This document shows positions 1 to 10,519 of a DNA stretch of 64,000 nucleotides, piece after piece. The position numbers were made by a program, and so were the translations under genes. The DNA is taken from positions 166,626 to 230,625 of the forward strand of contig JAJDVG010000008.1 in assembly GCA_022826245.1 (NCBI GenBank). The letters run 5' to 3'. Each line of letters opens with the position of its first letter. Position 1 is the stretch's first letter. The stretch is from Gammaproteobacteria bacterium. Its GTDB lineage: Bacteria; Pseudomonadota; Gammaproteobacteria; Steroidobacterales; Rariloculaceae. The notes beneath the pieces are model-generated. The model saw only the letters and a program-made list of their open reading frames with translations. It did no database searches and had not been told where the DNA came from.

Positions 1-1683
1 GATCGAATCGGCGCCGACCTGCCCGAGGCCGCGGCCGCCGATCAGGATGTCGCCTTCGGTGGGAACGAGTATCCCCAGCATCAGGTGCATCAGCGTGGTC
101 TTCCCGCAGCCCGAAGGGCCAACGATCGCGACTGACTCGCCCGCCTCGATCATGAGATCGATGCCGTCGAGAACCCAGGGCTCGTGTTCGGCATAGCGAA
201 AACGCAGACCGCGCAGCTCGATCGTCGGCTCGAGCGCGCCGGCATCCGACAGCGCCAGACGCTCGCTCGCGTCGCTGTCCTCCGGCTCCGTCATCACGAT
301 GTCCGCCAGGCGCTCGCCCTGCAGCCCCAGCATCCTCAGTTCGCAATACCTGTCGATGAGCGCCGCAACCCGCGAGGCGAACTGCCGCTTGTAGGCGAGA
401 AACGCGATCAGCATCCCGGCCGACAACTGCCCGCCAAGCACGAAGGACGCGCCGATCCATATGACGACGACATTCTCGATACCGAACAACAGGCCTTCGG
501 CCAGCCTGTAGAAGATCTGCAGCTTCTGCGTACGCAGGCCGGCGTTGATCTGGTTGACGAGGAGCGCAAGCCAGCTCGTGCGCCGTTCCGCGCGGCGCCG
601 GTAAAGCTTGATGGCCTTGACGCCACGCACCGTCTCGATGAAATGGCTCTCTTGCCGTGCCGCGTGCACGATGTTCTGCTCGGTCGCATGACGCAGCGGC
701 GCGAACCAGGCCCACCGGATCAGTGCGTAGATCGTGAGCGCGCCGACGCAGACCCAGGCCAGTACCGGGCTGTACAGGAAGATTACGATCAGGGTAACGA
801 CCGTGACCGCGCCGTCGGCGATCGCCTCGATGAAGGTCGTTGTCAACGTACGCTGGATAACGTCGATCGAGCGAAAGCGGGAAACGGTATCGCCGAGATG
901 CCGCTTTTCGAAGTACGCCAGCGGCAGCCTCAACAGGTGCGTGAACACGTTCGCCTGCCACTGAATGCTCAGGTTCGTGCTGAAGTACATGATGACCCAG
1001 GAGCGAAGCCCCGCGATCGACTGCTGCAAGACGGTCAGCAGCAGAAATCCGAGTGCCAGCATCGTCAGCAGATCGTTGTTGAACGACACGAGCACATGGT
1101 CGATGACCCATTGGAGAAACAGCGGGCTCGCGATCGCGAAAACCTCGAGCGCAAGCGCAAGCAGCAGAATCTGGCCGAGCGAGCGGAAGAGGCCCGTCAC
1201 GCGGCCCATGAGGTCGCGCAGCCTCACGTCGGACCGGTCGCTGCGCGGTTCGAAGTCCTGATTCGGCCAAAGCTCGAGGGCTACGCCGGTGAACGCCGGA
1301 GACACTTCGTCGTGTGTGAGCCTGCGGAATCCCGCTGCGGGGTCGTGGATCTCGATACTGTTGCCGCGCACCGCCTTGAGTACGACAAAGTGCTTGAACT
1401 CCCAATGCAGAATGCACGGGCGCCGAAGCTTGTCGAGGTCTTCGAGTTCGAGCCGCAGCGGCCGTGTCGCAAGACCCAGGCGACTTGCGACATCGACGAT
1501 TCCGTTGAGTCTCGCTCCCTTGAGGGACACGGGGAAGCGCCGCCGGAGCGACGCGAGATCGGTACGATAGCCGTGATAGTTGGCGATCATCGACAGGCAG
1601 GCCAGCGCGCACTCGGCAGCCTCCGTCTGCAGTTCGACGCCGAGGCGTGTTCTCAGGCCCAGGCGTAGCTGATCGATCACCAT
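1..1683 (-). CDS. C39 peptidase-containing ABC exporter (CvaB/LagD type), 3' end cut by the window edge
   Basis: This inner-membrane protein would cleave double-glycine leaders and export the mature peptide. My translation of the complement is open for 561 codons with no stop. Residues about 15-120 form a C39 peptidase with Q19, C25 in ECALAC, H98 in KHFVVL and D114 in HDP, the expected oxyanion, nucleophile and His/Asp residues. A six-helix ABC membrane domain follows (about 155-440). The nucleotide-binding domain starts near 490, with Walker A GPSGCGKTT at 522-530; the rest lies outside the window. The ATG at 1683 follows AAGGA at 12 nt, rather long spacing. The gene lies just downstream of, and on the same strand as, three precursor peptide genes with matching leaders, so it is the likely dedicated processor and exporter. 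Family call is firm; substrate assignment is inferred from context. Confidence 0.93.
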   Translation of the reverse strand, partial: MVIDQLRLGLRTRLGVELQTEAAECALACLSMIANYHGYRTDLASLRRRFPVSLKGARLNGIVDVASRLGLATRPLRLELEDLDKLRRPCILHWEFKHFVVLKAVRGNSIEIHDPAAGFRRLTHDEVSPAFTGVALELWPNQDFEPRSDRSDVRLRDLMGRVTGLFRSLGQILLLALALEVFAIASPLFLQWVIDHVLVSFNNDLLTMLALGFLLLTVLQQSIAGLRSWVIMYFSTNLSIQWQANVFTHLLRLPLAYFEKRHLGDTVSRFRSIDVIQRTLTTTFIEAIADGAVTVVTLIVIFLYSPVLAWVCVGALTIYALIRWAWFAPLRHATEQNIVHAARQESHFIETVRGVKAIKLYRRRAERRTSWLALLVNQINAGLRTQKLQIFYRLAEGLLFGIENVVVIWIGASFVLGGQLSAGMLIAFLAYKRQFASRVAALIDRYCELRMLGLQGERLADIVMTEPEDSDASERLALSDAGALEPTIELRGLRFRYAEHEPWVLDGIDLMIEAGESVAIVGPSGCGKTTLMHLMLGILVPTEGDILIGGRGLGQVGADSI

Positions 1684-1687
1684 TCGA

Positions 1688-1723
1688 CTGTTGCATCCTT
1701 GCAGTGAATTCGGCTTTCACGGA
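1688..1723. repeat. 36-bp direct repeat, copy 1 (duplication boundary)
   Basis: The stretch starting ctgttgcatccttgcagtg recurs at 2735-2770 with only a few mismatches. This copy contains the AAGGA ribosome-binding region of the C39 exporter gene and ends 4 bp short of its start codon. It marks the downstream edge of the segment that was duplicated to make the peptide modules. Confidence 0.8.
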
Positions 1724-1737
1724 CGCGCCATGAAAGG

Positions 1738-1777
1738 GGGAACCGGAACCAGGATCGGGTCCTGGCATCCGGTTCCC
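1738..1777 (-). terminator. Hairpin 1, downstream of peptide module 1
   Basis: GGGAACCGG (1738-1746) pairs with CCGGTTCCC (1769-1777), and an inner CCAGGA/TCCTGG stem extends it. No clear T-run follows on either strand. It may attenuate transcription or stabilise the upstream RNA rather than fully terminate, because the exporter gene continues on the same strand. Related hairpins follow the other two modules. Confidence 0.65.
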
Positions 1778-1823
1778 AAAGGGTGTATGCGCGTCAAGTC
1801 AATGGCGGCGGGAATGCCCGGCG

Positions 1824-2021
1824 CTATTCCTCCTTGCGATCCTTCGAGTGACGACGGGCCACGATCGTGCTGTAGCGCATGAGCGTGCCGACCATGCCGC
1901 CAAAGCCGATGGCCAACATCAGTTGCTCGAACAGATCGAAGTCGGCCGCCTGTACCATGATCGTCAGTGACCACACCGTGAACAGAATCGGGTACATCGC
2001 ATTCCAATCGATTTTTTTCAT
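1824..2021 (-). CDS. Small two-helix membrane protein 1, candidate immunity protein
   Basis: A 65-residue protein starting MKKIDWNAMYP, with two hydrophobic segments (about 9-27 and 32-50) and a very charged tail, RRHSKDRKEE. The ATG at 2021 is preceded by GGAGAG at good spacing, so I prefer it to an upstream in-frame ATG. It lies 57 bp after the module 1 peptide gene. The second-helix pattern E-x3-LA[IV]-x2-G-x2-[AV]G-x-L-x-R is shared with the products at 2996-3178 and 3992-4201. Bacteriocin immunity proteins are often small membrane proteins encoded beside the toxin gene; that role is inferred from position and topology only, and no known family was recognised. Confidence 0.65.
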   Translation of the reverse strand: MKKIDWNAMYPILFTVWSLTIMVQAADFDLFEQLMLAIGFGGMVGTLMRYSTIVARRHSKDRKEE

Positions 2022-2078
2022 GTTTCTCTCCGTTGACTCAACAAGACCTGAACGCGCGGTACAGGCGCGCAAAAGCGA

Positions 2079-2381
2079 TCAGCAGCCGAAGAAATAGGTC
2101 ACGGCCCCATCCCAGGCGTACACGGCAGCGTAGGCCGCGCCCCCGAGAAGTGCCCCGCCGACCATGCCCGGCAGCGCGCCGCCGCCTCCGGCCAAAGACC
2201 CGGCCATACCACCGGTAACCGCCCCCGCGAACGCCGCACCGCCGAAGTCGGACCAACTCCACGAAGCACCGCTCACCAACAGCAGCTCTTCGTTGGAAAG
2301 CTCGCGCATCGCTCCGGGAGCCGGCAGCTCCATCGCAACCGCCGCCGCACCGACCGAAGGGCTCATTTCAACCGAATAAAT
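2079..2381 (-). CDS. Microcin/class II bacteriocin-like precursor peptide 1 (probable ATT start)
   Basis: The 100-residue precursor has a 39-residue leader ending MRELSNEELLLVSGA and a 61-residue core rich in Gly and Ala with GxxxG-like spacing, starting SWSWSDFGG and ending in Cys (YFFGC). The leader fits the double-glycine type cut by C39 peptidases; MRxLxxxELxxVSG is close to the colicin V leader. By alignment with module 3, the codon 6 nt after GGAGG is ATT (2379-2381), where module 3 has ATG. The next in-frame ATG (2364-2366) is about 21 nt from that Shine-Dalgarno site, too far for efficient use. Translation therefore starts at ATT, or weakly at the ATG giving 95 residues. Antimicrobial activity is inferred. 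Confidence 0.72.
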   Translation of the reverse strand: MYSVEMSPSVGAAAVAMELPAPGAMRELSNEELLLVSGASWSWSDFGGAAFAGAVTGGMAGSLAGGGGALPGMVGGALLGGAAYAAVYAWDGAVTYFFGC

Positions 2382-2543
2382 ATTCCACCTCCAATGTGTT
2401 TTTCAAATCCGTCGTTTGTCGTTCCGTAGTTCGTCGCCGCATGCGACGTCGCGCACCATACCGCGATGCGACCGCGAACCCCACACGCGAATCGAGGCTT
2501 TTTTCATCGAATCGCCACACGCAGGCCGCAGGGACTCTCGCGG

Positions 2544-2734
2544 CTACGCCCGCTTGTACGCACTCAGCGCCAGCATGAGCCCGATGGTGTTGTCGCGCGT
2601 CTCGCGGAAAAACGCGAGCGAGAGTTCGGGCACCGGGCACTGGAGGACCGGTTCTTCGTTCCCGGCTGCGACGAGTTCGGCCCGAAGCTTGCGACCGCCG
2701 CCTGCCGGGCCGACTTCAAGCACCAGCCGATCCC
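2544..2734 (-). pseudogene. Truncated 3' remnant of a CxxK beta-lactamase-fold gene
   Basis: In the frame ending at TAG 2544-2546 this encodes 63 residues ending in LMLALSAYKRA. They align without gaps to the C-terminus of the enzyme at 4767-6113, with roughly 85 percent identity by eye; both contain the block FFRETRDNTI. There is no start codon and no catalytic domain. The homology stops at 2734, where the 2735-2770 direct repeat begins. It lies about 160 bp upstream of peptide gene 1, in the same arrangement as the full-length gene before peptide gene 3, so it came along in the module duplication. Confidence 0.85.
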
Positions 2735-2770
2735 CTGTTGCATCCTTGCAGTGGATTCAGGTTTCACGAT
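2735..2770. repeat. 36-bp direct repeat, copy 2 (duplication junction)
   Basis: This near-copy of 1688-1723 is fused directly to the truncated enzyme remnant at 2734/2735. Since copy 1 is the upstream region of the exporter gene, this point reads as the join of a tandem duplication: an exporter upstream region next to an enzyme 3' end. The 136 bp from here to the hairpin at 2907 hold no gene that I can support. Confidence 0.78.
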
Positions 2771-2906
2771 GGCCGCTTCATGCATGAACACGAGGTACGG
2801 GCGGACGGCGGATCGTTATGCGATCCAGGCGATACGGGCGATACCCGCCAGACGTCAACACCGGGGATACTGAACACGCCGATCCGCGGGACTGCGCCGG
2901 AGGACG

Positions 2907-2944
2907 GGAACCGGAACGGCAAGGACATCCCGCATTCCGGTTCC
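2907..2944 (-). terminator. Hairpin 2, downstream of peptide module 2
   Basis: GGAACCGGAA (2907-2916) and TTCCGGTTCC (2935-2944) are perfect 10-bp arms, nearly the same stem sequence as hairpin 1. It lies about 50 bp past the module 2 membrane-protein stop codon. No T-run is visible. Confidence 0.65.
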
Positions 2945-2995
2945 TGAGCAGCTCGCCGGCGACTGGCTGGCGACCAGCGAGTTTGCAGCCTGCCG

Positions 2996-3178
2996 CTACT
3001 GGTCTCCCGAGCGTTTCCGCGAGACGAGGGCGCGCGTCAAGAACCCGGCGAGCAGCCCGACCGCGACGGCCAGCACGACAGTTTCCGCCAACGCCAGTTC
3101 GTTCGACAACGTAACCGCAGCCACCGTGACACCCACGGCCACGCAGACCGGAACCAACCACTTGCTGCGTGTCTTCAT
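2996..3178 (-). CDS. Small two-helix membrane protein 2, candidate immunity protein
   Basis: A 60-residue protein starting MKTRSKWLVPVC, with two hydrophobic helices (about 7-24 and 32-50) and a basic end, SRKRSGDQ. It is clearly related to the product at 3992-4201: both have VAVG/FSVG-x-TVAA and ETV[VI]LA[VI]A[VI]GLLAG. Its ATG overlaps the peptide 2 stop codon by one base (TGATG), so translation is probably coupled and the two products made in fixed ratio. Immunity or co-export helper roles are possible; neither is shown by sequence. Confidence 0.65.
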   Translation of the reverse strand: MKTRSKWLVPVCVAVGVTVAAVTLSNELALAETVVLAVAVGLLAGFLTRALVSRKRSGDQ

Positions 3179-3471
3179 CACGGAGCGTTCTTCCATGCAT
3201 CCAGGTCGGCGCCGGAGGAAGGGTCGGTCTGCGGGCGCCGGTCGTGGAGCGGGCCCGTAATGAACGCGTAAGCATAGACCGGCACCCCCCCGGGAAACAT
3301 GCCGCCCGGTCGCCCGCTCGCGACTCCCGGAAAACCGAACGCGTAGCCGCTCCAGGCGCCGCTCACGAGTAACAGCTCGGTATCCGAGAGTTCTCGCATC
3401 GTACCCGCAGCCGTCTGTTGCGCGGCGCTGACCCGACGGCTGGCCGTCGAAGTGTTGTCGATCGAATGCAC
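3178..3471 (-). CDS. Microcin/class II bacteriocin-like precursor peptide 2 (GTG start)
   Basis: A 97-residue precursor with MRELSDTELLLVSGA at residues 25-39, exactly the positions found in peptides 1 and 3, although the first 24 residues differ. The GTG at 3471 follows AAGGAGG at 6 nt, which fixes the start. The 58-residue core is unlike the others: it starts WSGYAFGFPG, is rich in Gly, Pro and aromatic residues, then becomes polar (PLHDRRPQTDPSSG) and ends DAWKNAP without a terminal Cys. It keeps the export leader but has a diverged cargo, and may be a second peptide type or a partner of the others. Activity is not predictable. Confidence 0.7.
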   Translation of the reverse strand: MHSIDNTSTASRRVSAAQQTAAGTMRELSDTELLLVSGAWSGYAFGFPGVASGRPGGMFPGGVPVYAYAFITGPLHDRRPQTDPSSGADLDAWKNAP

Positions 3472-3600
3472 GGTCCACCTCCTTGCATGTTTCCATCAGT
3501 TCCATTGCTTGCCGTAGGATGCGACCCGAAACAGCCTACCGGTGGGGATCGAACATTCCAAGATCGGAATCGGCTTGTTTCGCGGCGATTTGAATGTGAA

Positions 3601-3890
3601 CTAAACCTGGTGTTGTCCGGGCTGTTGCTCGTTCTCCGCCAACCGCAGGATTCGCTCGGCGGAACCGGGCAAAACAGCATCTTAGCGTTCGAACAGTGCC
3701 GGCGGAGGGAGCGGCCCCTTGAACGAGGCCGCTTGTACGTACGCTACTCGCGTGTCGTCAGGAACACCTTCGAGCATCGCGCTCTGCAGCATTTCGCCGA
3801 CTTCATCTTTGGCGCGATCTTTGAGTGCCGACTCGGGCGGAGGGGGTGTTCGTGTGCTCTTGCGTTTCGTCCGCTTCGGTGGTTGCGCGG
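3601..3890 (-). pseudogene. Decayed DUF2335-like gene fragment
   Basis: One frame reads GPLPPPALFER, then stop TAA (3682-3684), then DAVLPGSAERILRLAENEQ, then stop TAG (3601-3603). Intact DUF2335 proteins have GPLPPP-x2-L-x2-Y-x4-PG-A-x-RI-x2-MAE; the first stop replaces the conserved Tyr. Upstream there is a KR-rich and PPPP stretch but no start codon before hairpin 3. The C-terminal membrane part of the family is missing. It separates module 3 from module 2 and is a broken insertion or leftover. The family assignment is from memory of the motif. Confidence 0.55.
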
Positions 3891-3896
3891 AGAAAA

Positions 3897-3938
3897 CGGG
3901 AGCCGGAACGAGAACCTGATCGTGCGTTCCGGCTCCCG
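3897..3938 (-). terminator. Hairpin 3, downstream of peptide module 3
   Basis: CGGGAGCCGGAACG (3897-3910) and CGTTCCGGCTCCCG (3925-3938) are perfect 14-bp arms around a 14-nt loop. The sequence is related to hairpins 1 and 2 (core GGA[AG]CCGGAA), and it lies about 50 bp after the module 3 membrane-protein gene. Confidence 0.7.
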
Positions 3939-3991
3939 TAGCGTCAACACGGGATTCGATGCCAGAGATACGGCGACTCGCCCGCCTGGAT

Positions 3992-4201
3992 TCAGTCCTC
4001 CGATCGGCTGTGCGCAATGGAAAAGCGCGCCAGCGACCCGGCGAGCAATCCGATTGCGATCGCTAAAATCACAGTCTCGACAACCGTCGTTTCTGTCGCC
4101 ATCGAGATGGCGGCAACTGTGCAACCAACGCTGAAGCAAACCAGGTAAAACCACTTTCTCTTACCTGGCTGATTCCACTGGATCTTGTCTGCTTTCTTCA
4201 T
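3992..4201 (-). CDS. Small two-helix membrane protein 3, candidate immunity protein
   Basis: A 69-residue protein starting MKKADKIQWNQPGKRKW, with hydrophobic segments at about 18-34 and 40-58 and a polar end, AHSRSED. It is a close relative of the 2996-3178 product (shared VG-x-TVAA and ETV-x-LA-x-A-x-GLLAG) and a more distant one of the 1824-2021 product. It starts 60 bp downstream of peptide gene 3, the same spacing as in module 1. Role inferred from the repeated peptide/membrane-protein pairing. Confidence 0.65.
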   Translation of the reverse strand: MKKADKIQWNQPGKRKWFYLVCFSVGCTVAAISMATETTVVETVILAIAIGLLAGSLARFSIAHSRSED

Positions 4202-4261
4202 TTCGTGATTTTCCTGGCGTCGAATTTCAAAGAGAAGCTCGGGGCCGTCGACGGTCTTTGC

Positions 4262-4552
4262 TCAGCAAGTCCACCAGCTCCAGATCTGGCTGCCGATGTA
4301 GGTAAAACCGCCTCCGATGGCGCCGCCGATCAAGCCGACGCCCGCGCCATGCAAGCCACCGAGATACAGCCCGGTCGCCCCCCCGCCGAGCGCCCCTGCA
4401 AATACCGAACCGCCGAAGTCGGTCCAACTCCACTCACCGCCGCTCACGAGCAGCAGCTCCGCAGCGGAAAGTTCGCGCATCGCGCCGGTAGCCGGCAGTT
4501 CGATGGCGACCGCCGATGCACTGACCGAAGGGCTCATTTCAACCGAGTACAT
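4262..4552 (-). CDS. Microcin/class II bacteriocin-like precursor peptide 3
   Basis: The 96-residue precursor starts MYSVEMSPSV, with ATG at 4552 placed 6 nt after GGAGG; an earlier in-frame ATG at 4576 lies upstream of that site and is unlikely. The leader MRELSAAELLLVSGG occupies residues 25-39 with a canonical double glycine. The 57-residue core starts EWSWTDFGG, is Gly-rich with several GxxxG motifs and ends QIWSWWTC. Leader and first core residues match peptide 1 closely; both end in Cys. Such cores suit membrane-inserting class II bacteriocins or microcins. It follows the CxxK enzyme gene by 214 bp on the same strand. Confidence 0.78.
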   Translation of the reverse strand: MYSVEMSPSVSASAVAIELPATGAMRELSAAELLLVSGGEWSWTDFGGSVFAGALGGGATGLYLGGLHGAGVGLIGGAIGGGFTYIGSQIWSWWTC

Positions 4553-4766
4553 AGTCCACCTCCAATGTGTTTTCAAGTTCCGTCGTTTGTCGCGTCAGGC
4601 GACATGAGCACGTTAGCGATCCTGAACCAACGAACCCACACCTGAATCGGGGCATTTCGAATCAATTGGAGCACGGCGATCATTGCTGTCGGCAACGGTC
4701 GGGCGTCGCACTCGAACCACGGGAACAGGAAACGCCCGTTACCCATGCACGACCCCAAACCTCGGG

Positions 4767-6113
4767 TTACGCCCGCTTGTACGCACTCAGCGCCAGCATG
4801 AGCGCGATGGTGTTGTCGCGCGTCTCGCGGAAGAAGGCGAGCGAGAGTTCGGGAATCGGGCACTGGAGGATAGGTTCCTCGTTTTCGGCCGCGATGAGTT
4901 CGGCGCGCAGCCTGCGATCGGCGCCTTCCGGGCCGATCTCAAGCACCAGCCGATCGTCGTCGTGTTCGGCCCTTACGGTCGTCCGGCCGCCGCCGATGTA
5001 TCGGCCCTCAAGCTCGCCAAGCTCGAAGGGCAGCGAGCGCGGCGTTCTCGCCGCCATGCGTCCGCTCAGTTGCTGGCAGAGCACGGTCAGAATGTAGTCG
5101 CGCAGATGGGAGAGTTGGGCATTGAGGCCGACGACAATGGCGAGCTTCGATCGCGGATCGTACCGCAGCCCGATGCACTGGCCGCGCGTCTGGCCGTTGT
5201 GACCGAGGAAACCGTCGCGCTGGTGCGCCGTTCCACAGCCGAAGGCGACCGGACGCAGATCCGCGTAGGCACCGCCCACGACGGCCGGTAGCTCGACGGC
5301 GCGACGCTGCAACAATTCAAGCGTGGCGCTGGACAGCGGCCCGGCCGTGCTGCCGTTTGGCGTTGCAAGCGCCTCGGCAAGGGTGAGCAGATCGGCTGCG
5401 GACACCGCAAACCGGGCGAACGACGGTTCCCAGAACTCCGCCATGGCCGATACGGCCGCGCTCGGCCGGAAGCGCTGCGTTGCAGGGTCGAAATCGTGAC
5501 GTCCGGCGCTCTTCGTTCCCGATGAACCCGTGCCGCAATCGCGCGTGGAGATGCCGAGCGGATCGAGCAGCTTTTCGCGAATCAGTTGATTCGAATCCCG
5601 ACCCGTGACCCGCCGGACGATTCGGCCGAGCAGCACGGCTTCGCTGTGCTCGTAGCTGAATACGCGACCCGGTTCAAAGAACTGCGGCGCCGACCGAAGA
5701 TAGTCGACGAAACGATCCCATGTGAGCGACCGGCCTTCCGCCTCGTGGATGCTGACGCCGCGGTAGCCGCTCGTATGCGACAGCAGATGCCCTATGCGCA
5801 CCGAATCGCCGGCCCGGACGTCGCGCAACTCGGTGAGGTATTCGCCGATCGGCGCATCGAGGTCGAGCTTGCCCTCGCGGACGAGTTCGAGAACGACGGC
5901 GGCCAGCAGCAGCTTCGTTACGCAACCGATCCGGAATTGCGAGTGCTGCGACATCTTGACGGAGCCACCGGCCGCGGTGGCGCCGACATTGACATGGATG
6001 CGCTGCTGAAGGTTGCTTATCGCGACCGAGATGCCCGGAACGCGGGTTTGCGCGCGGACCTGCGTGACGAAAGCGTCGATCCGGGCCGCGACCGCATCGG
6101 GAGAATGCTGCAT
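4767..6113 (-). CDS. Beta-lactamase-fold enzyme with Cys nucleophile (CxxK), number 1
   Basis: A 448-residue member of the serine beta-lactamase/DD-peptidase (class C, EstB-like) superfamily. The ATG at 6113 follows GGAG at good spacing. The family motif normally reads SxxK; here it is FRIG-C64-VT-K67, and codon TGC at 5922-5924 confirms the cysteine. The second motif YxN appears as YEH (FSYEHSEAVLLG) and the third is GHNG. After about residue 350 comes a beta-rich C-terminal domain of the type often fused to these hydrolases. There is no signal peptide, so it is probably cytoplasmic. Next to precursor peptide genes it could modify, trim or transfer onto the peptide, or protect the cell; this is inference. 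It is not expected to be a drug beta-lactamase. Confidence 0.85.
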   Translation of the reverse strand: MQHSPDAVAARIDAFVTQVRAQTRVPGISVAISNLQQRIHVNVGATAAGGSVKMSQHSQFRIGCVTKLLLAAVVLELVREGKLDLDAPIGEYLTELRDVRAGDSVRIGHLLSHTSGYRGVSIHEAEGRSLTWDRFVDYLRSAPQFFEPGRVFSYEHSEAVLLGRIVRRVTGRDSNQLIREKLLDPLGISTRDCGTGSSGTKSAGRHDFDPATQRFRPSAAVSAMAEFWEPSFARFAVSAADLLTLAEALATPNGSTAGPLSSATLELLQRRAVELPAVVGGAYADLRPVAFGCGTAHQRDGFLGHNGQTRGQCIGLRYDPRSKLAIVVGLNAQLSHLRDYILTVLCQQLSGRMAARTPRSLPFELGELEGRYIGGGRTTVRAEHDDDRLVLEIGPEGADRRLRAELIAAENEEPILQCPIPELSLAFFRETRDNTIALMLALSAYKRA

Positions 6114-6313: not shown

Positions 6314-7585
6314 ATGCAAACCCCATCGCCGCTGTTTCGCCAGACCGCCCTTGAGGCGCGCGACCGCGAGACGCTTGGCAGGATCGTCCTGGTTCGCCCG
6401 GTGTCCTTCGGGATTTACTGCGCTATCGTGCTCGCGGTCACGCTCGCGCTGACCGGATTCTTCGTCTGGGGCGAATACACGCAACACGAGACGCTGTTCG
6501 GCCAACTCGTGCCGGCGCGGGGCATCGTGGAGATCCGTGCGCCGCAGCATGGATCGATCGTGCAGCGAAATGTGGACGAGGGAAGCGTCGTCGGCGCCGG
6601 CGATTTGCTCTACGTCATATCGAGCGAACGGGTCAGCCGTGCGCTCGGGCCGACCCACGACTCGGTGGGCCGTCAACTCGACATCCGGCGAAGAAGCCTG
6701 CAGCAACAGATCGAACACACGGAGCTGTCGGCACAGCAGGAGCGTGCTTCGCTGCAGCGCAGAATCTCGACACTCGCAGCGGATCTCGACGAACTCGTCG
6801 GCATGATTCTCGACGAGGAGGAGCGCGTTGCCCTCGCTGAGGAGTCGGCTTCGCGTCACGCCCGGCTGCAGCAACAGGGCTTCATCCCGGGCGAAGCCGT
6901 GACGGCCAGGCGCGCCGAACTCCTCGATCGACGGTCGCGTTTCAAACTCCTCGAACGCGAGCACGCGCAGGCCGAGGCGGAGCTGAACGAACTCGAGACG
7001 CGGCTGCTCAATCTGCCGTTGGAACACCGGATCCGCCTCGCCGAACTTGAGCGGGCGGTGGCCATGGTAGATCAGGAAATCGCCGAGAACGCCGCCAGAC
7101 GCAGCATCGTGATCACGGCGCCCGCCGCGGGCATCGCCACCGCGGTGCTTGGCAGAGTCGGTCAACCCGTCGACGCCTCAAGATTGCTCGTATCGATCGT
7201 GCCGGCCGATTCACCGCTACAGGCGCAGCTCTATGCGCCCAGCCGTGCCGTTGGCTTCGTCAATCCGGGAGACGAGGTCCGCTTGCGATACCGTGCGTAT
7301 CCCTATCAGAAGTTCGGTCACTATCGCGGCAAAGTAGCGACGATATCGCGCAAGCCGCTTTCGCCCATGGAGTTGCCGGCAATGCAGGGGGCGACTCCCG
7401 GAGTCAACCGCGAGCCCATGTATCAGATCGTCGTGAGCCTCGACGCTCAATCGGTCACGATCGCAGGCCGGCAACACGACCTCAAGGCCGGCATGCTCGT
7501 TGAAGCGGACGTCCTGCGCGAGACGCGGCGGCTGTACGAATGGGTACTCGAACCGCTATATGCATTGACCGAGAGAATTCATTGA
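6314..7585 (+). CDS. HlyD/CvaA-family periplasmic adaptor of the peptide exporter
   Basis: This 423-residue membrane-fusion protein links the inner-membrane ABC exporter to an outer-membrane TolC channel. One transmembrane helix spans residues 31-52. A lipoyl-like half follows (APQHGSIVQRNVDEGSVV), then a long alpha-helical coiled coil of about 150 residues, the second half (ITAPAAGIATAVLGRVGQPV) and a beta-barrel ending. The ATG at 6314 was chosen because MQTPSPLFR precedes the membrane helix at the usual distance for CvaA-like proteins; no strong ribosome-binding site is visible. It is transcribed away from the CxxK enzyme gene across a 200-bp gap and overlaps the next gene tail to tail by 7 bp. 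No tolC lies in the window. Confidence 0.9.
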   Translation: MQTPSPLFRQTALEARDRETLGRIVLVRPVSFGIYCAIVLAVTLALTGFFVWGEYTQHETLFGQLVPARGIVEIRAPQHGSIVQRNVDEGSVVGAGDLLYVISSERVSRALGPTHDSVGRQLDIRRRSLQQQIEHTELSAQQERASLQRRISTLAADLDELVGMILDEEERVALAEESASRHARLQQQGFIPGEAVTARRAELLDRRSRFKLLEREHAQAEAELNELETRLLNLPLEHRIRLAELERAVAMVDQEIAENAARRSIVITAPAAGIATAVLGRVGQPVDASRLLVSIVPADSPLQAQLYAPSRAVGFVNPGDEVRLRYRAYPYQKFGHYRGKVATISRKPLSPMELPAMQGATPGVNREPMYQIVVSLDAQSVTIAGRQHDLKAGMLVEADVLRETRRLYEWVLEPLYALTERIH

Positions 7586-8904
7586 TGCGCCTGTCGCACT
7601 GGCGACGATCCAGGACGTTTCGGCCAGATGCATCGGCCGTTCCAAAGGTAGCGCCGCGAGCCCCGATCGTGCGCAATGAACTGCACGAACGGAAACCTGC
7701 CCGCGGCGCCGGGTTCCGGCAGGAAGATATCGTCGGCCGCCGGCCGCAACCCTGTGCTGAAACGTTTTCCGAAGCTTGATGGGCGTTTTCGGCGCGTGCT
7801 GTCCACCTCCATCTGCAATCCGCCATCTGCGCAACAGCTAATGGAGACGGACTCCGAGGCGCTGCGGTAGATTCCCGCATACCGGTGCGAATCCATGGCT
7901 TCGATCTCGTCGGAGGTCAGTCGTCTCGGCATAATCAGCCCGGAAAACTCCGGCAGGATTTCGCCGAACAGTCGCGCGGCGACCAGGAGCGCCGGCTGTT
8001 GACGCGAAGCGACGACGAGCGCCGTTCCGTGTGCGGGGCGAATGCGCACGAGGACGGATGCACCGGGCCAGGTGGAATGATGGCCGAACCAGTTGCGACC
8101 GTACGACTTCCAGCCGTTACAGATACCGCGTTCGAAAGGACTGAAGCCCGGCAGCCTGAAGATGGCGGTCGGCCAGGAAAGCGGATCGTAGCTCATGGCG
8201 TAGCGCAGGAACCGCAGCAGATCGATGACGGACACGGCCAGGTCCTCGCCGACGGAGGGACATATGCGCGCAGCGGCGGCCTCGCCGGCCGGGGCGCTGC
8301 CCTGCCCTGCGCCGAGTCTCAACGGCCGGAACAGGCGCTCCCGGAGCAGCGCTCTCCAGGTCGTTCCAGTGAGTTTTTCGAGCACGGCGGCGATCAGCCA
8401 GGCGCCGGCGTTCGAGTAGCTGTAGAGCGTGCCCGGCGAGAACAGTCGCTCGGCGGCCACGAGCTGCCGCGTCAGGCGCTCCGCATCGATGCGCCCGTTC
8501 GCCAGCTGCGGCATCCCGCACAGCGCCGAATCGTCGAGCCCGTGCGTGTGATCGAGCAGGTGCTGGAGCGTGATACGCGAGTAGACGCCTGCCGCATGTG
8601 CGGTCGCGTCACCCAGATACTCCGCAACGGGGGAATCGATCCCGACGCGGCCCTGGCAGACCAACTGTCGAAGCAACGCGCCAGTGAAGAGCTTCGTGAT
8701 GCATCCGGTTCGGAAGGGTTCAGGCTCGCCGTTCGCATCGTCCGCAACCCTGGCGACACGGGATTCTCCGGAATGCGTAACGCCGACTTCAATGCGCCTG
8801 GGCGCCTCGCCCTGCGAGATCTCATCGAGCCGCTGTTGCAGGTAGCCGGGTTCGATGAACGTGCGAATGTGGGCAGGTGACGGCATGTCCACAGGAAAAG
8901 CCAT
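7579..8904 (-). CDS. Beta-lactamase-fold enzyme with Cys nucleophile (CxxK), number 2
   Basis: A protein of about 441 residues in the same superfamily as the 4767-6113 product but only distantly similar. The catalytic motif is FRTG-C68-IT-K71; codon TGC at 8701-8703 confirms Cys instead of Ser. The YxN motif is intact (YSYSNAGAWL) and the third motif reads GHHSTWPG. A C-terminal beta domain ends near YLWNGRCIWPKR. I place the start at ATG 8904; ATG 8886 (MPSPAHIR) is an alternative, neither with a clear ribosome-binding site. It converges with the adaptor gene and diverges from the acyl-CoA synthetase gene. A shared nucleophile change in two divergent paralogues suggests a selected function, perhaps peptide maturation or acyl transfer. 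Confidence 0.83.
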   Translation of the reverse strand: MAFPVDMPSPAHIRTFIEPGYLQQRLDEISQGEAPRRIEVGVTHSGESRVARVADDANGEPEPFRTGCITKLFTGALLRQLVCQGRVGIDSPVAEYLGDATAHAAGVYSRITLQHLLDHTHGLDDSALCGMPQLANGRIDAERLTRQLVAAERLFSPGTLYSYSNAGAWLIAAVLEKLTGTTWRALLRERLFRPLRLGAGQGSAPAGEAAAARICPSVGEDLAVSVIDLLRFLRYAMSYDPLSWPTAIFRLPGFSPFERGICNGWKSYGRNWFGHHSTWPGASVLVRIRPAHGTALVVASRQQPALLVAARLFGEILPEFSGLIMPRRLTSDEIEAMDSHRYAGIYRSASESVSISCCADGGLQMEVDSTRRKRPSSFGKRFSTGLRPAADDIFLPEPGAAGRFPFVQFIAHDRGSRRYLWNGRCIWPKRPGSSPVRQAHQ

Positions 8905-8992
8905 CAACCGCGAGCGGGTCAATCGGCGTTTCCGAACCGAATCGTGAGTTTTCGGCCTCGACTCCCGAAGCGCCGTTCGGCCCAATGTTCCG

Positions 8993-10519
8993 ATGCAATC
9001 CCCAGGCTTCAGGCACTTCGCGCTGAACGACCCGAACCGCATCGCCATCCGCGAAGCGGGCGGACGCTGCGTCGCGCGCGGTGCACTCGACGCATCTATC
9101 AATCGGATAGCTCGCGCACTCGCAGCCTCCGGGCTCGACCCCGGCGATGCCATCGCGATCGTTTCGCCGAACTGCGCCGAGTACCTGGCCGCGTATCTGG
9201 CCGGCCTGAGGGCGGGGCTCCACGTCGTTCCGGTGAACTGGCATCTCGCCAAACAGGAACGGGACTTCATCCTCGCCGATTCGGGCGCGAAAGCGATCTT
9301 TGTCCACGAACGCCTGCCCGCATCGAGACTCGCCGACCTGGCCGCTTACAGGAATCCGGGAACTCTACTGGTCGGAATCGGCCGCGCTCCGGGCTGCGTG
9401 CCGCTGAGCGAATTCGTCGCCGGCCACCCCGCCGAACCTCCGAATCATCGTTTCATGGGCCGCGCCATGCACTACACATCCGCGACCACCGGCAAGCCCA
9501 AGGCCGTGCTGCTGCAGCGCGACCGCGCGGAGACCGCACGACGGAGGGTCATCGAGTTCCACCGGCCCGCGGGGATCGACCCGAGCGCCGACAATGTGCA
9601 TCTGTGCAATTCGATGCTCTATCACGCGGCGCCGCTCGAACGCGCCGTGAGCGCGCTGCACATGGGGCATGCGCTCGTTCTCGTCGAGCGCTGGGACCCC
9701 AGGCAATGTCTCGATCTCATCGAGACTCATGGCGTCACGACAAGCTTCATGGTCCCGTCGATGTTCATCCGGCTGCTGAAGCTCCCGGAGGCAACACGGG
9801 CTCGCTACTCGACAGACTCGCTGAAGTTCGTCGCGCACGGGGGCGCGCCCTGTCCACCGGGCATCAAGCGCAAGATGATCGATTGGTGGGGACCGATCAT
9901 CTGGGAAGGCTACAGCGCCACGGAATGCCAGGGCACTTTCGCAAGCAGCGAGGAGTGGCTCCGGTATCCCGGTACGGTCGGCAAGCCGATCCCGGGTTCG
10001 GAACTTCGCATCATGAACGACGAAGGCGAAACGCTGCCGCCGGGCGAAGTCGGCACGGTCTACATGACCCGGTTTACGGGCGACCGTTTCGAGTACCGTA
10101 ACGACCCGGAAGCGACGCGCGCCTGTTACCGCGGCGAGTTCATCACCGCCGGAGACCAGGGCTACGTGAACGAGGAAGGTTATCTGTTCCTGTGCGACCG
10201 CAGAGCCGACCTGATCATCTCGTCCGGCATGAACATCTACCCAGCGGAAATCGAACAGGTTCTCGTCGAGCACCCGGCGGTCGCCGACTGCGCGGTGATC
10301 GGGGCTCCACACGAGCTGCTTGGCCAGGTCCCGAAAGCGATCGTTCAACCGGCGGCGAACTTCGAGCCGAGTAGCCCGCTTACGGCCGACCTTCTGGCAT
10401 GGCTCGCCGACAGGCTATCGGCCGCGAAGCTGCCGCACAGCATCGACTACACGAACGCGTTGCCGCGCGGCCCGAACGGCAAGCTCTACAGGCGGCGGCT
10501 GATCCGGCAGGTCCGATAA
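8993..10519 (+). CDS. AMP-forming acyl-CoA synthetase-like enzyme
   Basis: A 508-residue member of the adenylate-forming superfamily that activates a carboxylic acid with ATP and usually passes it to CoA. Visible motifs: the P-loop YTSATTGKPKA at 161-171 (more often YTSGTTGKPKG), GYSATECQG, the hinge region GDQGYVNEEGYLFLCDRRADLI, SSGMNIYPAEIE, and PNGKLYRR with the C-terminal catalytic Lys. The substrate cannot be read from the sequence. It diverges from the CxxK enzyme 2 gene with 88 bp between starts and is the last gene before the housekeeping block. It may supply an acyl group to the peptide system or be an unrelated fatty or aromatic acid ligase. Confidence 0.88.
   Translation: MQSPGFRHFALNDPNRIAIREAGGRCVARGALDASINRIARALAASGLDPGDAIAIVSPNCAEYLAAYLAGLRAGLHVVPVNWHLAKQERDFILADSGAKAIFVHERLPASRLADLAAYRNPGTLLVGIGRAPGCVPLSEFVAGHPAEPPNHRFMGRAMHYTSATTGKPKAVLLQRDRAETARRRVIEFHRPAGIDPSADNVHLCNSMLYHAAPLERAVSALHMGHALVLVERWDPRQCLDLIETHGVTTSFMVPSMFIRLLKLPEATRARYSTDSLKFVAHGGAPCPPGIKRKMIDWWGPIIWEGYSATECQGTFASSEEWLRYPGTVGKPIPGSELRIMNDEGETLPPGEVGTVYMTRFTGDRFEYRNDPEATRACYRGEFITAGDQGYVNEEGYLFLCDRRADLIISSGMNIYPAEIEQVLVEHPAVADCAVIGAPHELLGQVPKAIVQPAANFEPSSPLTADLLAWLADRLSAAKLPHSIDYTNALPRGPNGKLYRRRLIRQVR

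What the first reader, a model, noticed from the sequence alone, without database searches (positions are those of the whole stretch)
1688..4766. Three-module microcin-like toxin and immunity-candidate array
Three precursor peptide genes share MRELSxxELLLVSG(G/A) at exactly residues 25-39, yet have diverged cores, and each is followed by a small two-helix membrane-protein gene from one family and then a related hairpin. A C39 exporter lies directly downstream and a HlyD adaptor is nearby. Seen: leaders, motif positions, repeats. Known: C39 peptidases cut double-glycine leaders of class II bacteriocins and microcins. Inferred: this is a multi-peptide bacteriocin system. The 39-residue leader is far longer than the usual ~15-25 residues.
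Basis: partly seen in the sequence, partly recalled or inferred. Interest (0 to 1): 0.95.

Follow-up and report, generated by a model that had tools for sequence, protein, structure and literature searches.

The report
Three-module peptide array with cysteine hydrolases
This stretch of bacterial DNA carries three related small-protein precursor genes, each followed by a small membrane-protein gene and all next to the gene of an exporter predicted to cut off their leaders, which likely make three secreted, probably antibacterial peptides with matching self-protection; two linked enzyme genes carry a cysteine where 40 compared relatives carry serine, which hints at an extra, untested maturation step.

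Summary
On the minus strand lie three precursor genes (P3 4552-4262, P2 3471-3178, P1 2381-2079), each with the same GGAGGTGG ribosome site, a 24-residue extension, a canonical 15-residue double-glycine leader, a following two-segment membrane-protein gene and a hairpin; a C39 exporter gene follows and a HlyD gene lies on the other strand. Codons of the extension are under purifying selection in the P1/P3 type; 17 of 18 long-leader sequences have exactly 39 residues, eight next relatives 21-26. A predicted 39-residue leader is in print for RaxX. New: two linked PF00144 'serine' hydrolases have cysteine at the nucleophile; of 44 PF00144 proteins compared, the 4 exporter-linked ones have Cys, the other 40 Ser, and the pair sits with the exporter in another genus. 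Module 1 carries copies of the hydrolase 3' end and of the exporter's 34-bp flank and is absent, exactly between the flank copies, from a same-genus genome. Best reading: a multi-module class II microcin-like system with cognate immunity, a new variant of a known kind. Activity, cleavage, immunity and hydrolase function are untested.

The parts
4262..4552 (-). P3 precursor, ATG start, 96 aa: 24-residue extension, 15-residue GG leader, 57-aa glycine-zipper core
   Evidence: PF10439 Bacteriocin_IIc E 1.9e-4 but under its cut-off
3992..4201 (-). M3, 69-aa two-segment membrane protein, immunity candidate for P3
3896..3939 (-). Hairpin after M3, followed by TTTTCTCC (terminator- or attenuator-like)
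   Evidence: (I10); the simple terminator scan did not list it
3625..3878 (-). Remnant of a DUF2335 gene, full length in G002
   Evidence: 88% to L013:10780-11033; DUF2335 E 2e-17 in G002; the window's own ORF gave no DUF2335 match
3178..3471 (-). P2 precursor, GTG start, 97 aa: same leader, different hydrophilic core
   Evidence: P2-type clusters P0009, P0012-P0014
2996..3178 (-). M2, 60-aa two-segment membrane protein; its ATG overlaps the P2 stop by one base
2907..2944 (-). Hairpin after M2
2735..2768 (.). D7', second copy of the exporter's upstream flank (34 bp, 91%)
   Evidence: (D7)
2542..2732 (-). Duplicate of the hydrolase H1 3' end, 170 of 191 bases identical to 4765-4955
   Evidence: (D2)
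2079..2381 (-). P1 precursor; ATT start at 2381 behind GGAGGTGG gives 100 aa (95 aa from the ATG at 2366)
   Evidence: near-identical relative P0007 starts with Met there
1824..2021 (-). M1, 65-aa membrane protein, immunity candidate for P1
1738..1777 (-). Hairpin after M1
1688..1721 (.). D7, 34-bp flank directly upstream of the exporter gene
   Evidence: single copy at this place in G001
1..1683 (-). C39 peptidase/ABC exporter (5' 561 codons in the window; 740 aa in all, L015:1087-3309)
   Evidence: PF03412 E 2e-33, ABC_membrane E 4e-41, ABC_tran E 6e-30; C25, H98, D114 invariant in 4 of 4 orthologues
4767..6113 (-). H1, PF00144 hydrolase with GCVTK in place of GSxxK
   Evidence: PF00144 E 2e-45
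6314..7585 (+). HlyD-family membrane fusion protein
   Evidence: HlyD_3 E 1e-15; type_I_hlyD 112 bits, under its cut-off
7579..8922 (-). H2, second PF00144 hydrolase with GCITK; start uncertain (ORF 7579-9270)
   Evidence: PF00144 E 3e-36

Best explanation
The locus carries three precursor genes with a conserved double-glycine leader, each followed by a small membrane-protein gene, beside genes for a C39 exporter and a HlyD adaptor, and it most likely works as a multi-peptide class II microcin-like bacteriocin system with one immunity protein per peptide. Steps: each precursor would be bound through its MRELSxxELLLVSG(G/A) helix by the C39 domain, cut after residue 39 and pushed through exporter, HlyD and a TolC-type channel encoded elsewhere (inferred from family knowledge). 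The P1 and P3 cores, predicted glycine-zipper helices, would act on target membranes and M1 and M3 would protect the producer (inferred). P2 is a second peptide type of unknown target. The 24-residue extension in front of the leader is selected at codon level (shown for the P1/P3 type) and would serve as a docking site, most plausibly for the two linked cysteine-type PF00144 enzymes, which would act on the precursors in the cytoplasm before export (weak inference). The array gained at least module 1 by a segmental duplication or recombination next to the exporter (shown by the scar).
For: Leader pattern: 3 hits in the window, 0 in 50 Markov copies. dN/dS in the three pairs of P1, P3 and the G002 precursor: codons 2-24 0.10-0.21, leader 0.03-0.27, core 0.47-0.72. 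Same locus in G001 (two modules) and G002 (one module). C39 catalytic residues invariant in 4 of 4 orthologues. TolC-type genes at 4 other places of the genome. M and precursor clusters have the same longest contig length in 5 of 14 precursor clusters. G445 (L104), another family of the order: 51% identical exporter, HlyD and a precursor with the same core type and a 15-residue leader counted from its first Met. AlphaFold model of P3: residues 6-20 under pLDDT 50, helix 30-37, confident helix 43-95. Cys at the nucleophile in H1 and H2 of G000 and G005, Ser in the other 40 of 44 PF00144 proteins compared.
Against: No activity data. P1 and P3 stay under the Pfam cut-offs for MccV and Bacteriocin_IIc, P1's best Pfam match is DUF6861, also under cut-off, and P2 matches none of these. 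P2's extension gives dN/dS 0.56-0.84 against G002-P and P3. G005 has exporter, HlyD, H1 and H2 but no double-glycine precursor on its 28.5-kb contig by my pattern, so H1 and H2 need not act on this precursor family. Of the 5 contig-matched precursor and M pairs one joins a P3-type precursor with an M2-type protein, P0003 with P0052, and P0011 with P0058 agrees only weakly. P2's core has no hydrophobic segment. Foldseek gave no significant match for P3 (best E 3.8).
Confidence: 0.65

Rival explanations
1. The exported peptides are signals or host-directed peptides rather than bacteriocins, on the model of RaxX, which also has a predicted 39-residue double-glycine leader and a C39 exporter.
For: RaxX leader is residues 1-39 with most polymorphism between 2 and 24 (PMC6637879, passages), the same layout as here; P2's core is not membrane-like and recurs in four clusters, one of them nearly identical to the window's.
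Against: One membrane protein per peptide, with types P1-M1, P2-M2, P3-M3, fits immunity better; P1 and P3 cores diversify (dN/dS 0.47-0.72) and are predicted glycine-zipper helices; no sulfotransferase among the ten products scanned, though the genome was not searched for one.
Confidence: 0.15
2. H1 and H2 are not maturation enzymes but resistance or cell-wall enzymes that merely travel with the locus; the cysteine is drift or a binding-only state.
For: PF00144 is a broad family; four other C39 loci with precursors lack H1 and H2 in the 16-17 kb looked at (L073-L075, L104), so export does not need them. The third motif differs in H1 of G005.
Against: G, C, T, K and L of GC(I/V)TKL are invariant in 7 of 7 H1 and H2 proteins from two genera, H1 and H2 being only about 22% identical, and none of the other 40 PF00144 proteins compared has Cys.
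Confidence: 0.35
3. MccPDI-like tandem leaders: residues 1-24 are a first double-glycine leader and 25-39 a second, cut in turn.
For: P1, P3 and the G002 copy have Gly-Ala at 23-24, and MccPDI is cut at G17/G18 and G35/A36 (PMC5311971, passages).
Against: P2 and most of the other clusters have Thr at that place, and the hydrophobic and Glu positions of the leader consensus are absent ahead of it (read).
Confidence: 0.05
4. Translation starts at Met25 and the leader is an ordinary 15-residue one.
For: Met25 is nearly invariant and opens a canonical leader; P1's upstream start is ATT.
Against: GGAGGTGG ahead of codon 1 in all three and in the G001 and G002 copies, nothing of that strength ahead of codon 25; codons 2-24 are under purifying selection in the P1/P3 type; 17 of 18 long-leader sequences keep exactly 39 residues.
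Confidence: 0.05

Closest known systems
Class II microcins (MccV/colicin V type)
   Same: GG/GA leader, C39 ABC exporter, MFP, small adjacent membrane protein, TolC (PMC10233263, PMC9746304, passages); three adjacent MccV-like genes are reported in Xylella (PMC10233263, passage)
   Different: Leader 39 residues instead of 15-18; two cysteine-type PF00144 hydrolases; Pfam models under cut-off
Microcin PDI
   Same: 36 N-terminal residues removed by a C39 exporter (PMC5311971, passages)
   Different: There two leaders of 18 are cut in turn; here the first 24 residues lack the leader consensus
RaxX-RaxSTAB of Xanthomonas
   Same: Predicted 39-residue GG leader, variable residues 2-24, C39 exporter with an adaptor, TolC elsewhere (PMC6637879, PMC8872720, passages)
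   Different: One short sulfated peptide with a sulfotransferase; here three long cores, membrane proteins and hydrolases. No sequence comparison was made
Nif11 and proteusin (NHLP) precursors; LahT clusters
   Same: Long leaders (over 70 residues) cut by C39 exporters; LahT serves up to nine precursors with like leaders and diverse cores (PMC10885120, passages)
   Different: Here a 24-residue extension on a microcin-type leader; no modification enzymes of those classes among the products scanned
Corallotide graspetide cluster (CorD)
   Same: A PF00144 protein encoded with a ribosomal precursor and shown to bind it, function unknown (PMC13097080, passages)
   Different: Has a graspetide ligase and an oxygenase; whether CorD has Cys was not checked
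G445 locus L104 (same order, other family)
   Same: 51% identical C39 exporter, HlyD, precursor with the same glycine-zipper core type
   Different: 15-residue leader from its first Met, no H1 or H2 in the 16 kb fetched

Membership tests
Class II microcin | Double-glycine (GG/GA) leader with conserved consensus | tested here: met
   MRELSxxELLLVSG(G/A) in all three precursors
Class II microcin | Leader of 15-18 residues | tested here: not met
   39 residues in 17 of 18, 41 in one; range from PMC10233263
Class II microcin | C39 peptidase ABC exporter with intact catalytic residues | tested here: met
   PF03412 E 2e-33; Cys25, His98, Asp114 invariant in 4 of 4; which residues form the triad is recalled
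Class II microcin | Membrane fusion protein linked | tested here: met
   HlyD gene 6314-7585
Class II microcin | TolC-type outer membrane factor | tested here: met
   PF02321 over cut-off at 4 places of the genome, unlinked; that one of them serves this exporter is inferred
Class II microcin | Adjacent small membrane immunity protein | tested here: inconclusive
   M1-M3 fit by size, place and hydropathy; protection not testable here
Class II microcin | Matches Pfam MccV or Bacteriocin_IIc over the curated cut-off | tested here: not met
   Best 21.8 bits against 27.1; relatives P0001, P0003, P0005 carry PF10439 as precomputed
Class II microcin | Antibacterial activity | not testable with these tools
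   No experiment
MccPDI tandem-leader type | A second leader consensus in the N-terminal part | tested here: not met
   Residues ahead of position 24 lack the consensus; P2 and most other clusters have Thr there (read)
RaxX-type sulfated peptide | Linked tyrosylprotein sulfotransferase | tested here: inconclusive
   None among the ten products scanned; no genome-wide search made
NHLP/proteusin export system | Exporter over the NHLM_micro_ABC1 cut-off | tested here: inconclusive
   340 bits against 853, but only the 561-residue part in the window was scanned
PF00144 serine hydrolase/beta-lactamase | Family membership by profile | tested here: met
   H1 155.6 bits, H2 125.8 bits, cut-off 27
PF00144 serine hydrolase/beta-lactamase | Nucleophile serine of SxxK | tested here: not met
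   Cys in H1 and H2 of G000 and G005; Ser in the other 40 of 44 compared

The most novel reading that the evidence does not exclude
A new maturation branch of ribosomal peptide export: a pair of beta-lactamase-fold enzymes with a cysteine nucleophile docks on a dedicated 24-residue leader extension and modifies or re-ligates the peptide through a thioester before a C39 exporter cuts and secretes it; the peptide repertoire grows by stepwise insertion of precursor-immunity modules upstream of the exporter.
Probability: 0.17. Interest if true: 0.82.

Novelty: new variant of a known kind. Interest (0 to 1): 0.5.

Why it matters
A 2022 review counts 15 microcins, all from Enterobacteriaceae (abstract, PMC10233263), and gives class II leaders of 15-18 residues. 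This locus is a multi-peptide version in a gammaproteobacterial lineage known here from unnamed or MAG genomes, with a selected leader extension, a readable scar of how such an array gains a module, and, in the genomes seen, a strict link between one C39 exporter type and cysteine-type PF00144 enzymes. If those enzymes act on the peptides, a common hydrolase fold would have a role in peptide maturation that my searches did not find described (the nearest is CorD).

Tried and rejected
Structure of H1: AlphaFold from four sequences failed (mean pLDDT 40.6), so the active-site geometry was not examined. Structure search with the P3 model gave nothing significant; the top row, microcin E492 with ManYZ, has E 3.8 and is not used as evidence. 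M proteins as descendants of the DUF2335 hairpin: profile comparison 6.5% probability, BLASTP E 0.007 for M2, rejected. PADLOC: no hit at E 0.01 for eight proteins. Rfam: no match at gathering scores. The terminator scan listed none of the three hairpins. H1 profile in 398 phylum and 369 class genomes: only the own genome at E 1e-30. A first motif script missed most PF00144 loci because of its pattern and was replaced by an alignment. A leader-like ORF in G005 was left unresolved. Of the 44 proteins found with the precursor profile I measured leaders in P0001-P0023 only; of the weaker ones two that I saw, P0030 and P0036, are recorded with about 37 and 44 residues ahead of the core (counted by eye). 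In both an inner Met would give about 21, and the residues before it (KEETT) could be a translated ribosome site, so I read them as over-long gene calls; the DNA was not seen.

No paper of the library held three of 'beta-lactamase family', 'C39 peptidase', 'bacteriocin', 'serine hydrolase' or three of 'CXXK', 'beta-lactamase', 'serine to cysteine', 'SXXK'; two held 'PF00144', 'precursor peptide' and 'ABC transporter', of which I looked at passages of one. What I call not described rests on these alone; most subscription papers are missing.
Full report
WHAT IS THERE. Reading the minus strand 5' to 3': H1 hydrolase (6113-4767), P3, M3, hairpin, DUF2335 remnant, P2, M2, hairpin, D7', copy of the H1 3' end, P1, M1, hairpin, D7, C39 exporter. 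The HlyD gene (6314-7585) is on the plus strand; beyond it, on the minus strand again, lies a second PF00144 hydrolase, H2.

PRECURSORS. The leader pattern occurs 3 times in six frames of the window and 0 times in 50 Markov copies. A looser double-glycine pattern with a core of 12-110 residues in frames under 260 residues finds only the same three ORFs in the window. All three have GGAGGTGG three bases ahead of codon 1; the start codons are ATG (P3), GTG (P2) and ATT (P1); P0007, with a core 97% identical to P1's, begins with Met there. Eighteen long-leader sequences (three of the window, G002's, and clusters P0001-P0014, some nearly identical to the window's own) have 39 residues before the core in 17 cases and 41 in one. 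Of the next nine clusters P0015-P0023, eight have 21-26 and P0017 shows no leader; P0024-P0044 were not measured, and two of them that I saw (P0030, P0036) are recorded longer, probably as over-long gene calls. Between P1, P3 and the G002 precursor dN/dS is 0.10-0.21 in codons 2-24, 0.03-0.27 in the leader and 0.47-0.72 in the core (three pairs, not independent). P2 against P3 and G002 gives 0.84 and 0.56 in the extension; the G000-G001 pairs have too few changes to say. So the extension is constrained, and by inference translated, within the P1/P3 type, and diverged in P2.

CORES. P1 and P3 have 28-32% glycine, six to eight GxxxG, a C-terminal cysteine and one hydrophobic segment each; P2 has no such segment and no cysteine and ends GADL(N/D)AWKNAP, as do P0009 and P0012-P0014. 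The P3 model has a low-confidence N-terminus, a leader helix 30-37 and a confident helix 43-95.

MEMBRANE PROTEINS. M1-M3 are one family. The profile search gave 15 clusters, three of them identical to M1-M3. By equal longest-contig length, 5 of 14 long-leader precursor clusters share a contig with an M cluster; in 4 of these 5 the types agree (P0011 with P0058 only weakly), in one they do not (P0003 is P3-like, P0052 M2-like). For the other 9 the lists cannot tell. Two M types have the same longest contig in two cases (P0048 and P0050, 702,493 bases; P0056 and P0057, 3,691,466 bases), which suggests that multi-module arrays recur.

HOW THE ARRAY GREW. G002 has one module, H1-P1type-M1type-hairpin-DUF2335-exporter, with DUF2335 full length. 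G001 has P3-M3 and P2-M2 and lacks exactly the segment between D7 and D7': its two aligned blocks overlap by the 34 bases of D7. In the window module 1 begins with 191 bases that copy the H1 3' end (170 identical), followed two bases later by D7', a copy of the exporter's upstream flank. Whether G000 gained the segment or G001 lost it by recombination across D7 is open. In both, a DUF2335 remnant lies between modules 3 and 2.

THE HYDROLASES. H1 and H2 are PF00144 proteins, about 22% identical to each other, yet both read GC(V/I)TKL where the family has its serine nucleophile. I compared 44 PF00144 proteins: the 6 of G000 and the 12 of G005 that the family search found, and 26 from other genomes of the order, the best-matching loci given (L020-L045). 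They are not all independent (some are close relatives). The four exporter-linked ones have Cys, the other 40 Ser. G001's H1 and both G002 enzymes have Cys too; G001's H2 was not looked at. G005, another genus of the family, has H1 (43%), H2 (40%), HlyD (49%) and the exporter (63%) together, but no GG precursor on that 28.5-kb contig by my pattern. Three other C39 loci of the family (L073-L075; exporters 38-40% identical) and one outside it (L104, 51%) have short-leader precursors, counted from the Met that opens the leader, and no H1 or H2 in the 16-17 kb fetched. A more distant C39 locus of the own genome (L076) has neither H1/H2 nor a GG precursor in 14 kb; three further distant ones (L060-L062) were not examined. 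No signal-peptide predictor was run; by eye the H1 N-terminus has none. The role is inferred, not shown: cytoplasmic action on the precursor, with the extension as dock. A PF00144 protein that binds a ribosomal precursor, function unknown, is reported in the corallotide cluster (PMC13097080, passages).

DISTRIBUTION. P3 as query: 3 of 58 relatives, one genus, the own genome included; 2 of 369 genomes of the class, the own one and G161 with a short-leader peptide; 1 locus, G001's, in the scan of genome contigs. Precursor profile: 8 of 396 genomes of the order, 3 with the long leader and 5 matching only from about column 20 on (best E 1.2e-9, G445). H1 relatives at 43% identity or more over the length: 4 of 246 genomes of the order, while 206 have some PF00144-like match; only the own genome among 398 of the phylum and 369 of the class at E 1e-30. 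Exporter at 63% or more: 4 of 22 family genomes.

AGAINST WHAT IS KNOWN. It would work like a class II microcin system: precursor, immunity candidate, PCAT, MFP, unlinked TolC (PMC9746304, PMC10233263, passages). It departs in leader length (15-18 in that review) and in the hydrolases; several precursors per exporter are known (Xylella, PMC10233263; LahT, PMC10885120; passages). A 39-residue predicted GG leader is in print for RaxX, with most polymorphism between residues 2 and 24 (PMC6637879, passages), so the layout of 24 plus 15 is not unique, and Nif11 and proteusin leaders are longer still (PMC10885120). MccPDI's two 18-residue leaders (PMC5311971, passages) are a different solution. I therefore file it as a new variant of a known kind and keep the cysteine hydrolases as the part most worth testing.

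Noticed in passing
window 4767-6113 and 7579-8922: Two PF00144 'serine' hydrolases with Cys in place of the nucleophile Ser, linked to the exporter in two genera.
   Followed up: yes
window 3625-3878; L013:10776-11249: DUF2335 gene full length in G002 and a remnant in the window and in G001, lying between precursor modules.
   Followed up: partly
window 2379-2381: P1 appears to start at ATT behind a strong ribosome site; a relative with a 97% identical core (P0007) has Met there.
   Followed up: partly
L046:10037-10336 (G005): A short ORF next to a rhomboid protease gene ends in a leader-like MLELGEDEL...SVGC stretch without a core; could be a relic or a different precursor.
   Followed up: no
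L073, L074, L075: Other C39/HlyD loci of the same family with MccV-like short-leader precursors; L074 has two.
   Followed up: partly
L104:8327-8641 (G445): Short-leader precursor with a homologous glycine-zipper core directly beside a 51% identical C39 exporter gene.
   Followed up: yes
G000:C30:39322-41379 (L076): A second C39 exporter gene on the same contig, 32% identical, without a recognisable GG precursor in the 14-kb stretch.
   Followed up: partly
window 9644-9734: ARAGORN calls a tRNA-Glu inside a long open frame (8993-10519) that by eye looks like an AMP-dependent ligase; probably a false call.
   Followed up: no
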